Positions 12,567 to 57,200 of a stretch of DNA of 64,000 nt are shown piece by piece. Source of the DNA: Salinirubrum litoreum (lineage in GTDB: Archaea > Halobacteriota > Halobacteria > Halobacteriales > Haloferacaceae); contig NZ_JAJCVJ010000001.1 of NCBI RefSeq assembly GCF_020567425.1, positions 1,364,001-1,428,000 of the forward strand, in the 5' to 3' direction. Numbering within the stretch: the stretch's first letter is position 1; each line of letters opens with the position of its first letter. The translations under genes and the position numbers were made by a program. Under the pieces are notes generated by a model, which ran no database searches, had not been told where the DNA came from, and saw only the letters and a list, made by a program, of their open reading frames with translations.

Positions 12567-13275
12567 CGCAAACTCGGTCGAGTGTGTCGCGGACGACGAG
12601 GGGTGAAAGCCCCCGGCGTCTCGACCTCCCGCGACTCGTTGCGCGCTTCCCTCACGAGAGCGCGTCGCTTCGCTCGCGCTCTCGTTTAGTCCAGTGCTTA
12701 CGTCGTCGGGGGAGGATCGAGACGCCGGCCCCTTTCAGTCCCACCCGGAGTTTACGAAAGATCACGTCGCGTGGGTGGTCACCCGGTGAATCGTCTGCGA
12801 GTCTGGAACCCGGTCGTCGCAATCGTCTCCCCTGACCTCCCCGACTGCTGGCGACCGAACTGCGAATCGGTCTTCGCTGTCGCTCAGACACGATTCGGTT
12901 CCGGTCGCCACCAGTTCGCGTCCAATGCGGGTTCCCGGCCGTCGGCGACAGAGTCGGGTGACGAGTGTTGCGTGCGCTCTCATCTCGGTCCCGGCGCGCG
13001 CGAGGAACGTGCGCGAGGGAGAATCGCGGGCGGTGCGGAGAGCGATTCGAGGCTGGGGAGGACCGAGGTGCGGTGCTGTGCGGTGGCGGTTCCTCGCGCT
13101 AGCACGAGTCGCGGTCGCTGTACTGTCGCGGTGGTCGATGCAGTTCGGTGCGCAACGACGAGTAGCGGTGCTGGTGCAGTTCGCGGTGCGGTCGCGGTCT
13201 GCGGTCGGTCTCGTGACCCTGTTGCTCTCACAGCACTGTCCAACCACGCACCCAGCGACACGAACACGACCCAGT
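12567..13275 (+). repeat. Dispersed structured intergenic element, copy 1
   Basis: This fills the 799-bp gap between two convergent genes. Parts in order: a leading motif ending GGACGACGAG (12588-12600); a head inverted repeat with left arm 12603-12624 (GTGAAAGCCCCCGG...) and right arm 12717-12746 (...CCCCTTTCAGTCCCACCC), enclosing a perfect GAGAGCGCG/CGCGCTCTC hairpin; a nested stem TGGCGACCG (12849-12857)/CGGTCGCCA (12902-12910) with inner stem CGAATCG/CGATTCG; the core hairpin GAATCGC (13021-13027), loop GGGCGGTGCGGAGA, GCGATTC (13042-13048); then GAGGCTGGGGAGG and a GCGGT-rich tail with TCGCGCTAGCACGAG. No reading frame is shared with the other copies. The outer limits are estimates. Confidence 0.72.
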
Positions 13276-20531: not shown

Positions 20532-21325
20532 TGAACTCGGCTGGATCGGTTTCGGACGACGAGCGGTGAACACTCCCGAACGATCCGGATTCTGTCGAAC
20601 ATAGCGCAGACGACGAGGGGTGAAAGCCCCCGGCGTCTCGATGGTCCGCGACTTGGTGCGCTCCTCAGTCGGTCGAGCCAGCAAGCTGGCTCTCCCTCCC
20701 TGCGGTGCTAGCCGGCGTCGGGGACCAGTCGAGACGCCGGCCCCTTTCAGTCCCACCCGAACTCTGCGACCCATCACGTCGTCACTGGTCGTCACCCGGC
20801 AAATCGTCGCAGATTCGGAATCCGGGTCGTTCGTACTCCACCACACCTCCCCGACTGCTGAGCGACCGACCTGCGAGCAGGTCCTCGCTGTCGCTCGGAC
20901 ACTGCTCGGTGTCGGTCGCCAGCAGATCGCATCCCGTCGGATTCCGGGTTGTCGTCAAGAGTGTCGGGTGACGAGTGTGGCGTGCGCCTTCATCGAAAAT
21001 TCGGCGCGCGCGAGGAACGCGTGCGAGGGAGGCGGAGGTGGGCGGTGCGGAGAACCCCCGCCGAGGCTGGGGAGGACGAGGTGCGGTGCTGTGCGGTCGC
21101 GGTGGCGGTTCCCCGTGCTAGCACGAGTCGCGGTGTTGTCGCGGTCTGCGGTGTGGTTGCGGATGCGGTTCCTCGCGCTAGCACGAGTAGTGGTGCTGTG
21201 GCGGTCGCGGTTTGTTGTGCAGTAGCAGTCGCAGTCTGGGTGCTAGCACGATCACGGATCACAGTGCTGTCACAATCACCGACGTACCACTCCCCACCAC
21301 AGAAATCGACGAACACGACCCCACG
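20532..21325 (+). repeat. Dispersed structured intergenic element, copy 2
   Basis: This occupies the 915-bp gap between the rpl11 promoter and uppS. The leading motif occurs twice (20551-20567 and 20603-20618). The head inverted repeat has left arm 20619-20641 and right arm 20729-20758, with a different ~87-bp interior from copy 1. The second hairpin set has outer stem GCGACCGAC (20862-20870)/GTCGGTCGC (20911-20919) and inner CGAGCAG/CTGCTCG. The core hairpin is GGCGGAGGT (21031-21039), loop GGGCGGTGCGGAGA (21040-21053), ACCCCCGCC (21054-21062). The tail carries three GCTAGCACGA motifs, two of them within GTGCTAGCAC palindromes (21117-21126, 21240-21249). The limits are estimates. Confidence 0.72.
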
Positions 21326-34456: not shown

Positions 34457-35311
34457 TCACTCCGTGAGTGTCAGGGACGCGAGCGACGCGAACATCGCTT
34501 CCTCCGTTCGCACCACCCCGCTTCCCTGTCGCGGAATCGTATTCAGCCAGAGGTCGAACCCCGCAGGACCGGGTTCGACGTTCTCGGCTCCGTCCCACCG
34601 CGGTCGGTGGGCGGTCACGTCCTCGACTGACACGTCGAGGATCTCCGGAAGCCCTCTCTCGGGCGACCCGAACGCGACTGTCATGTCGCGGTCGGCCCGG
34701 CCGGCCAGTGTCGCCAGCCGCGAGACGGACAGTTCCTGCCCGTGTCGCGACGTGGCGATCCGCACACCGGCACCCTCACGGCCGAGTGCTTCCGGGAGGT
34801 CCACGCGTTCGACGACGAACCCCGGGGGGTCGCCGTCCACGATTCGCGCGCGGACCGGTTCTCTCGAAGAGACCCTGATGGTGACGCGCTCCCCCACCTC
34901 GACCCCGTCGGGGGCGAAGAGGGAGATCGGGTGTTGCAGTCCGCAATTGACCCGAACGCGGCCGTCAGGTCCGACCTCGGTCACGATTCCCTGTCTCAGC
35001 TCCGATCCCTCCGGATCGGAACCGGTCTCCGTGAGCGCGCGGAGCGGCGGCAAGACACCGACGTACTCCAGTTCGTCCCGGACGCCCCACGCCTCCTTTC
35101 GGAGGTACGGCGGCGTCGCGGCGTACCGCAAGACGGTGTCGACGAACCCGCCGCCCCACCGACCCTCGCCTTCCCGGTCCGGGAAGACACAGAGGCGATC
35201 CGCCCGAAACACCGTCGCCGCGCGGGCGACGTAGCCGAGTTTGCGGGTCGCCTCCCGCTTGTCTTCGGCTTCTCGGACGAGGGACGACGGCACGAGTACG
35301 CTGAGTGTCAT
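34457..35311 (-). CDS. SPOUT-family putative RNA uridine N3 methyltransferase
   Basis: A 284-residue protein of the COG2106/DUF171 SPOUT family. MTLSVLVPSSLVREAEDKRE, GYVARAATVFRADRLCVFPD, RYAATPPYLRKEAWGVRDEL, and an S-adenosylmethionine-binding trefoil knot near the end. An OB-like insertion (RQGIVTEVGPDGRVRVNCGL) splits the domain, as in the family. It heads the S10 operon in many archaea, linking rRNA modification to ribosome synthesis; the target nucleotide is not known to me. A TATA box at 35363-35371 lies upstream, giving a short leader. Confidence 0.85.
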   Translation of the reverse strand: MTLSVLVPSSLVREAEDKREATRKLGYVARAATVFRADRLCVFPDREGEGRWGGGFVDTVLRYAATPPYLRKEAWGVRDELEYVGVLPPLRALTETGSDPEGSELRQGIVTEVGPDGRVRVNCGLQHPISLFAPDGVEVGERVTIRVSSREPVRARIVDGDPPGFVVERVDLPEALGREGAGVRIATSRHGQELSVSRLATLAGRADRDMTVAFGSPERGLPEILDVSVEDVTAHRPRWDGAENVEPGPAGFDLWLNTIPRQGSGVVRTEEAMFASLASLTLTE

Positions 35312-51613: not shown

Positions 51614-51669
51614 ACGTGCTTTCTCGCTACGTATATTCAAGTACGGCCGATAGAATTCAAGCTACAAGG

Positions 51670-51706
51670 CGCTGTTCGTCCTCGCTGTCGCTCGGATAGA
51701 ACAGCG
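51670..51706. repeat. Hairpin with conserved loop next to tRNA-Arg fragment
   Basis: Perfect 8-bp stem CGCTGTTC (51670-51677)/GAACAGCG (51699-51706). The loop is nearly identical to loops in elements 1 and 2 (GTCC-TCGCTGTCGCTC-GGAT here). It ends exactly where a duplicated tRNA-Arg end begins. Confidence 0.65.
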
Positions 51707-51726
51707 GGCGTGGCGGGATCCGAACC
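51706..51726 (-). repeat. Partial copy of the tRNA-Arg 3' end
   Basis: Twenty of 21 bases match the T-arm and acceptor end of the intact tRNA-Arg at 51830. A weaker third copy (tggcagggtccgaacccgc, 51776-51794) lies between them. Such copies of tRNA ends are what archaeal integrases leave as attachment sites. A matching copy at the far (50.7 kb) side of the island was not found. Confidence 0.6.
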
Positions 51727-51829
51727 GGAGCGAGACAGTCCGGGCGTGCGACTCGCTTCGCTCCCTGCGCGCGACTGGCAGGGTCCGAACCCGCACTTCG
51801 TCCTCTGTGTCGCTACGCTCCGCAGAGAA

Positions 51830-51902
51830 CGGGCGTGGCGGGATTCGAACCCGCGATCGAGAGGTTAGGAACCTCTCGCCCTATCCGCTAGGCCACACGC
51901 CC
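51830..51902 (-). tRNA. tRNA-Arg (anticodon CCT)
   Basis: Acceptor stem GGGCGTG/CACGCCC, anticodon stem AGAGG/CCTCT with loop TTCCTAA (CCT), T-arm GCGGG-TTCGAAT-CCCGC. Discriminator G, no encoded CCA. It reads leftward, and its 3' end faces the AT-rich island. Confidence 0.95.
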
Positions 51903-56639: not shown

Positions 56640-57200
56640 GGAGATCGGGGGTTCGGGTGTGAGGGCTGTGACTGTATCGTGGACTGTGACTGCTACTGCG
56701 ACCACTACTGCACCGCAGACCGCGACAGCATCCGCACCGCAGACTGCGACAGCACCGCGACTCGATCCGGGACAACCGGAATATTCGACCGCATCCGCAC
56801 AGCACCGCGACCGCGTCAGCACCGCACCTCAGTCCCCCCAACCTCGGGTGGCTCTCCGCACCGCCCGCCACCCTCCCTCGCGCGTTGCTCGCGCGCCGAC
56901 CGCAACCGCACTGCGACAGCCGAACTGAATTCCCGACTCACGTCACACGCACCAGTCGAGTGGGCTGGCGCGACACCTCGGCGGCGTGGGGCCGCCTCGC
57001 GCGACCTCCCTGTCGCGCACCTCGGCGGCGCAGGGCCGCCTCGGGCGACGCCGACGGTCACAGGGAGGCGCTCGCGCTGAAATCGACTGGTCCACCGGCC
57101 GTTGCGTGCGCTTTCGCAGAAGCCACCGGGTGGGACTGAAAGGGGCCGGCGTCTCCAACTCACCCGACAGGAGCTACCTCGAAGACCGAGTGTCCCGCGA
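56640..57200 (-). repeat. Dispersed structured intergenic element, copy 4 (inverted)
   Basis: It occupies most of the 749-bp gap between GT4 and tbsP in opposite orientation to copies 1-3. Read leftward: head right arm only (57156-57128, ...CCCCTTTCAGTCCCACCC), stem CGACTGGT (57084-57091)/ACCAGTCG (56951-56958), a CCTCCCTGT (57005-57013)/ACAGGGAGG (57060-57068) stem, and two GGCGGC-N5-GCCGCC hairpins (57024-57040, 56980-56996). Then the core hairpin with stem GGGTGGC/GCCACCC (56846-56873 including the loop), GAGGTTGGGG, and a GCGGT/CAGT-rich tail to about 56645. The left head arm is missing. Confidence 0.72.

What the first reader, a model, noticed from the sequence alone, without database searches (positions are those of the whole stretch)
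12849..12910. Second conserved-loop hairpin in copies 1 and 2, and beside tRNA-Arg
A loop GTCY-TCGCTGTCGCTC-RGAY is nearly the same in copy 1 (12870-12890), copy 2 (20881-20901) and at 51678-51698, but its stems are CGAATCG/CGATTCG, CGAGCAG/CTGCTCG and CGCTGTTC/GAACAGCG. Even the loop-closing pairs covary (GTCC/GGAC to GTCT/AGAC). The hairpin is therefore an independent module moving with or without the larger element.
Basis: seen in the sequence. Interest (0 to 1): 0.7.

Follow-up and report, generated by a model that had tools for sequence, protein, structure and literature searches.

The report
Conserved-cap hairpin in dispersed haloarchaeal repeats
The hairpin is real: it is the tip of a folded domain that occurs about 66 times between genes of this salt-loving archaeon, and the same loop sits on unrelated stems just behind tRNA genes in many relatives, so it looks like a reusable hairpin cap whose stem only has to pair.

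Summary
Copies 1 and 2 carry GTCY-TCGCTGTCGCTC-RGAC plus a bulged A on stems CGAATCG/CGATTCG and CGAGCAG/CTGCTCG. Site 51678 has the same cap and bulge on CGCTGTTC/GAACAGCG.

In copies 1 and 2 it is the tip of a ~135-nt double hairpin ("core A"). About 66 copies lie in this 4.06-Mb genome, nearly all intergenic, and no comparable copy was found in 292 other genomes of the order. Compensatory changes greatly exceed shuffles (103 vs 37 cells, 0/500). Core A sits in a modular non-coding element: a widespread head, then core A or an alternative core B, then a tail. About 25 cores lack the head. Arm variants are unlinked to the rest of the core.

Site 51678 is not part of that element. It belongs to a tRNA-3'-flank hairpin class: 26 of 29 sampled family matches adjoin a tRNA gene or tRNA fragment, with site-specific paired arms. 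The hairpin behind tRNA-Arg(CCT) in another genus has identical arms, so 51678 looks like a resident of that tRNA locus rather than a recent arrival.

Likely reading: a loop-and-bulge-recognised hairpin cap reused in non-coding repeats. Movement and function are not shown. No Rfam match.

The parts
12863..12897 (+). Apical hairpin of copy 1: arms CGAATCG/CGATTCG, closing GTCT/AGAC, loop TCGCTGTCGCTC, bulged A at 12890
   Evidence: sequence, coordinates, fold
12804..12939 (+). Core A domain of copy 1: outer stem, long hairpin and apical hairpin
   Evidence: covariance model R2, 135.6 bits, E 7e-31
12603..12746 (+). Head module of copy 1 (GTGAAAGCCCCC ... CCGGCCCCTTTCAGTCCCACCC)
12993..13061 (+). 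Tail module of copy 1 (GGCGCGCGCGAGGAACG ... GAGGCTGGGGAGG)
20874..20908 (+). Apical hairpin of copy 2: arms CGAGCAG/CTGCTCG, closing GTCC/GGAC, same loop, bulged A at 20901
   Evidence: sequence
20816..20949 (+). Core A domain of copy 2
   Evidence: covariance model R2, 125.6 bits, E 2e-28
20620..20758 (+). Head module of copy 2
21003..21075 (+). Tail module of copy 2
51670..51706 (-). tRNA-flank hairpin with the same cap and bulge, arms CGCTGTTC/GAACAGCG; in the tRNA sense it directly follows a partial copy of the tRNA-Arg 3' end
   Evidence: identical arms beside tRNA-Arg(CCT) in L271
51706..51726 (-). Partial duplicate of the tRNA-Arg 3' end
   Evidence: pattern match; sequence
51830..51902 (-). 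tRNA-Arg (anticodon CCT)
   Evidence: ARAGORN and Rfam

Best explanation
The feature is a hairpin cap: a 12-nt loop TCGCTGTCGCTC, four closing pairs and an unpaired A, set on arms that only need to pair. In copies 1 and 2 it is the tip of core A, a ~135-nt folded domain of a non-coding, modular intergenic element (head, core A or core B, tail) that has multiplied to about 66 cores in this lineage. The same cap is a standing feature of tRNA 3' flanks in related genera. Shown: the fold, its compensatory changes, the copy number, the two core types, the tRNA association, and the lack of linkage between arm type and the rest of the core. Inferred: something binds loop plus bulge on the folded single strand, RNA or DNA, so loop and bulge stay fixed while arms drift in pairs. 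Also inferred: the element spreads as a non-autonomous repeat and its copies exchange sequence.
For: Core A: about 66 copies in the own genome, most at E < 1e-18; none comparable in 292 other genomes of the order, best 40 bits against up to 152. Pair statistics: 90.9% of cells paired, 103 two-sided-change cells against 37, 0/500 shuffles; sliding partners by 1-3 columns drops pairing to about 30%. tRNA-flank set: 27 sequences, 11 of 12 pairs change on both sides, 69 against 28.5 cells, 0/500; loop identity 0.94 against arm identity 0.35, own-arm pairing 5.1 of 8 against 2.6 for cross-site arms. 26 of 29 family matches read adjoin a tRNA or tRNA fragment, 14 of them within 4-7 nt of the tRNA 3' end. 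Head module in 169 of 293 genomes of the order. All 30 heads examined are followed by core A (11) or core B (19). Arm type unlinked to flanking variation. Almost all cores intergenic, 19 of 45 classifiable ones between convergent genes. Same cap on other arms in other families (L193; L372-L376, L386, L390, L394).
Against: No transposase, target duplication or empty site was tied to the core or hairpin. 15 TnpB and 3 TnpA matches; the 15 loci fetched carry no head, tail or comparable hairpin. A binding factor is purely inferred. Only one genome of the genus was available, so presence or absence at orthologous loci could not be tested. Exchange among copies could itself create the apparent double changes.
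Confidence: 0.55

Rival explanations
1. Core A and the tRNA-flank hairpins act as structured RNA: trailer or 3'-UTR hairpins that are processed, or that protect or end transcripts, with the cap bound by an RNA-binding protein. For core A the minus strand would be the transcript.
For: Hairpins start within a few nt of tRNA 3' ends in the tRNA sense. The minus strand folds better than the plus strand (z -5.4 and -6.0 against -4.7 and -4.9). In core A, A.C mismatches on the plus strand, which are G-U on the minus strand, outnumber G.T 51 to 24 by my tally of the pair counts printed. Many cores follow the 3' end of a gene, often between convergent genes.
Against: By alignment column the A.C/G.T contrast is only about 10 to 7, so the strand test is inconclusive. 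No expression data. Eleven copies carry a promoter-like TATA sequence between core and tail that points in the plus direction, away from the core. No Rfam match.
Confidence: 0.25
2. The paired changes are made by DNA processes, not by selection: template switching or hairpin-templated repair corrects one arm from the other, and gene conversion moves whole hairpins between copies.
For: Arm changes come in blocks (CA/TG to TC/GA), are linked within the hairpin and unlinked to everything else. Arm type is as scattered as a shuffle on a tree of the rest of the core. Chimaeric and internally deleted copies exist (L255, L258, L259, L260).
Against: Paired changes also occur one at a time at many pairs, in the lower stem and in the loop-closing pairs. 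tRNA-flank hairpins in different genera pair with many unrelated arms while the loop and bulged A stay fixed; arm correction alone does not explain a fixed loop.
Confidence: 0.2
3. The apical hairpin itself is an independently mobile unit that jumps alone into new sites.
For: The same 21-nt cap with bulge stands on unrelated arms at 51678 and in other genomes.
Against: Outside core A only one or two of 15 exact loop matches in this genome form a hairpin. The 51678 arms match the orthologous tRNA-Arg flank in another genus. Within this genome the hairpin otherwise comes with the ~135-nt core.
Confidence: 0.08
4. A common k-mer with chance arms.
For: The 12-mer total is no higher than the reversed control (58 against 54).
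Against: 43 of 58 lie in one structured domain with significant covariation.
Confidence: 0.01

Closest known systems
Small mobile repeats (SMR-A) of Haloquadratum walsbyi (PMC3119063)
   Same: Short (~110 bp) non-coding haloarchaeal repeats with inverted terminal repeats, up to 54 copies in one genome, often inside other repeats, mode of mobilisation unknown.
   Different: SMR copies are commonly over 95% identical and target PATEs and IS605-type elements. Core A copies are roughly 70-87% alike, carry a conserved loop with compensatory changes, and were not found at TnpA/TnpB loci.
PATEs of Haloquadratum (palindrome-associated transposable elements, PMC3119063)
   Same: Transposase-free, divergent, heterogeneous haloarchaeal repeats with palindromes.
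   Different: PATE palindromes are near-terminal and related to IS605 ends; the hairpin here is central and no relation to IS605 loci of this genome was found.
Bacterial REP/BIME elements with RAYT transposases (own knowledge)
   Same: Intergenic, hairpin-forming, many copies, often near gene 3' ends, with conserved non-arm positions.
   Different: REPs are shorter and linked to a RAYT gene; no such link was found here.
IS200/IS605 end hairpins and integron attC sites (own knowledge)
   Same: Hairpins recognised by loop and extrahelical bases while stem sequence is free: the closest functional analogy.
   Different: No cognate recombinase was identified; resemblance of mechanism only.

Membership tests
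SMR-A (Haloquadratum) | about 110 bp with inverted terminal repeats | tested here: inconclusive
   Core A is ~135 nt with outer stem GGAAYCC/GGRTTCC; exact ends not defined
SMR-A (Haloquadratum) | copies commonly >95% identical | tested here: not met
   BLAST identities to copy 2 about 70-87% over longer matches
SMR-A (Haloquadratum) | targets PATEs and IS605-type transposons | tested here: not met
   No core, head or tail at the 15 TnpA/TnpB loci fetched apart from one weak motif match in L239
SMR-A (Haloquadratum) | no target duplication | tested here: inconclusive
   No duplication seen by eye around headless cores; no empty sites available
PATE (Haloquadratum) | near-terminal palindromes related to IS605-type ends | tested here: not met
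   Hairpin is central; no matching motifs at the genome's IS605-type loci fetched
REP/RAYT | cognate Y1 transposase gene linked to repeats | tested here: inconclusive
   Three Y1 genes, none with the repeat in its locus
Structured RNA family (Rfam) | match to a curated family | tested here: not met
   No relevant match at gathering threshold or E up to 1
Conserved structured RNA in general | compensatory changes above controls | tested here: met
Conserved structured RNA in general | transcribed | not testable with these tools
   No expression data available

The most novel reading that the evidence does not exclude
Haloarchaea use a common hairpin cap, a fixed loop plus bulge on free arms, recognised by a still unknown host or mobile-element protein. 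It marks tRNA 3' ends and is built into lineage-specific modular intergenic elements that exchange whole cores (A or B) and hairpin arms between copies.
Probability: 0.25. Interest if true: 0.8.

Novelty: new variant of a known kind. Interest (0 to 1): 0.6.

Why it matters
Haloarchaeal intergenic DNA holds large families of non-coding elements that none of the searches here could name. The shared cap links dispersed repeats with tRNA 3' flanks. It gives one small, testable recognition motif (loop plus bulged base) that could reveal the protein or process that spreads or maintains them. The two interchangeable cores, and the unlinking of arm type from its surroundings, make a natural data set for telling selection on folding from DNA-level hairpin correction.

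Tried and rejected
Rfam for the window and elements: no match to the hairpin or element. Plasmid and phage records: only short matches to the head region on four haloarchaeal plasmids, none to the core. Exact core pattern in 84,980 genomes: scattered single matches, mostly bacteria; the two haloarchaeal ones score weakly with the model (L130 19 bits, L149 14 bits). Viral contigs: six pattern matches, none a convincing core, best L231 at 20.5 bits. IS605 origin: no shared motifs at tnpA/tnpB loci. Strand from wobble pairs: A.C exceeds G.T by cells but not clearly by columns (counts). First automatic covariance model R1 was too poor in pairs and was replaced by R2. Literature searches by sequence words and by topic found no description of these elements; the library lacks most subscription journals.

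Full report
What is there. Copy 1 has CGAATCG-GTCT-TCGCTGTCGCTC-AGAC-A-CGATTCG at 12863-12897. Copy 2 has CGAGCAG-GTCC-TCGCTGTCGCTC-GGAC-A-CTGCTCG at 20874-20908. The third site has CGCTGTTC-GTCC-TCGCTGTCGCTC-GGAT-A-GAACAGCG at 51670-51706. An unpaired A below the closing pairs is shared by all three and was not noted before.

Copies 1 and 2. The hairpin is the tip of a longer hairpin and an outer stem, together about 135 nt, here called core A. Folding is far better than 200 shuffles on both strands. A covariance model built from 52 copies gives 67 matches in the own genome; about 66 are copies of the domain, 62 of them at E below 1e-15, the weakest few damaged or chimaeric. In 292 other genomes of the order only six weak matches occur, at best 40 bits against up to 152; one is the tRNA-flank type and one a tandem tRNA-associated array. 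Core A is therefore lineage-specific as far as sampled. Only one genome of the genus was available.

Structure test. On 52 copies 90.9% of cells pair. Fifteen of 31 pairs change on both sides at least once. There are 103 two-sided-change cells against 37 in shuffles (0/500), and sliding the partners by 1-3 columns drops pairing to about 30%. The apical helix has 9 of 13 pairs with two-sided changes and 94% pairing. The arms are variants of one stem, not unrelated: GAGCAG/CTGCTC 17 copies, GAGTCG 7, GGGCAG 4, GAATCG 3, others fewer. Arm type is linked within the hairpin (mean r2 0.26 between arms) but not to any other part of the core (r2 about 0.02, equal to the null of 1/51). It is as scattered as a shuffle on a tree of the remaining columns. 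Part of this may be poor tree resolution. The linkage result does not depend on the tree.

The larger element. Core A usually lies between a head (GTGAAAGCCCCC...CCGGCCCCTTTCAGTCCCACCC) and a tail (GGCGCGCGCGAGGAACG...GAGGCTGGGGAGG). The head is widespread: 169 of 293 genomes of the order, up to about 160 copies, while the reversed control pattern gave none in any genome listed. In the own genome there are 86 head ends. Of the 30 examined, 11 are followed by core A and 19 by another domain, core B (GGTGGACCAGTCG...CGACTGGT), none by anything else. About 25 cores lack the head and about 16 lack both head and tail. Almost all cores are intergenic; among those with both neighbours called, 19 lie between convergent genes, 13 and 7 between tandem genes and 6 between divergent genes (gene calls are a crude composition filter). 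Eleven copies carry promoter-like TATA sequences between core and tail, pointing away from the core.

Site 51678. It scores only 24.6 bits with the core model and has no head or tail. In the tRNA sense it directly follows a partial duplicate of the tRNA-Arg(CCT) 3' end. A search of 99 genomes of the family for GTCCTCGCTGTCGCTCGGAYA (up to 2 mismatches) finds it in 29 others. I read one locus in each: 26 of the 29 adjoin a tRNA gene or tRNA fragment, 14 within 4-7 nt of the tRNA 3' end. Across these 26 plus 51678 the loop is 94% identical between sites but the arms only 35%. Own arms pair at 5.1 of 8 positions against 2.6 for arms taken from different sites. Eleven of 12 pairs change on both sides, 69 against 28.5 cells, 0/500. 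One of them, L271, is the tRNA-Arg(CCT) of another genus and has exactly the arms of 51678, directly at the tRNA 3' end. The simplest reading is that this hairpin is an old resident of that tRNA locus, and that in the window a further unit with its own hairpin and a copy of the tRNA 3' end now lies between. In a genome of another family a tandem array of 152-nt units next to tRNA sequence carries GCGAGCAGGCC-TCGCTGACGCTC-GGCACTGCTCGGTG, close to the core A hairpin including its arms (L193). This hints that the core A tip and the tRNA-flank hairpins share an origin. Order-wide matches show the same cap on yet other arms, in some cases inside head-like elements.

How it may work. The pattern is a fixed loop and bulge on arms that only need to pair. 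That is what one expects if a factor reads loop and bulge on a folded single strand, RNA or DNA. IS200/IS605 ends and integron attC sites work this way (own knowledge), but no recombinase could be tied to these hairpins. An RNA role is also open: tRNA-flank hairpins lie where 3' trailers lie, and the minus strand of core A folds slightly better. The wobble-pair test of strand is inconclusive (51 A.C against 24 G.T cells, about 10 to 7 by column; tallied from the counts). A third possibility is that DNA-level correction and gene conversion create the paired changes; chimaeric and internally deleted copies and the linkage result fit that in part.

Verdict. The interpretation as an independent module is partly right: the cap recurs without the element. 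Movement of the hairpin is not shown, and the arms at 51678 are shared with the orthologous tRNA flank elsewhere. No known family fits: tests against SMR and PATE fail on defining features, and Rfam has no match.

Noticed in passing
56800-57149 (- strand): A third element in the window with the head right end (57128-57149) followed by core B instead of core A.
   Followed up: partly
G000 genome; e.g. L337-L365: Two mutually exclusive core domains (A or B) follow the same head; 11 and 19 of 30 heads examined.
   Followed up: partly
window 51640-51902; L271, L293, L296, L301, L306, L309, L311, L313: Partial copies of tRNA 3' ends, separated by hairpins, lie downstream of several tRNA genes, as if small units had been inserted at tRNA 3' ends.
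   Followed up: partly
L193 (another family, G051): Tandem 152-nt units, each with a tRNA 3'-end-like sequence and a hairpin very like the core A tip.
   Followed up: no
L196-L225 and 169 genomes of the order: The head module is a widespread haloarchaeal structured repeat with its own variable internal hairpins; not in Rfam and not found in the papers searched.
   Followed up: partly
L011, L017, L018, L024, L036, L049, L056, L058, L059, L065, L080: TATA-box-like sequences, several with an upstream BRE-like CGAAA, between core A and the tail in 11 copies, suggesting that the tail, or in L065 the next protein gene, is transcribed from there.
   Followed up: no
L207 and L217; L205, L210 and L219: Head elements downstream of apparently the same gene in different genomes with different internal hairpins, suggesting conserved positions with replaced interiors.
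   Followed up: no
34875-34968 (-): Rfam match to the L4-Archaeoglobi ribosomal leader (RF03135), 75.5 bits.
   Followed up: no
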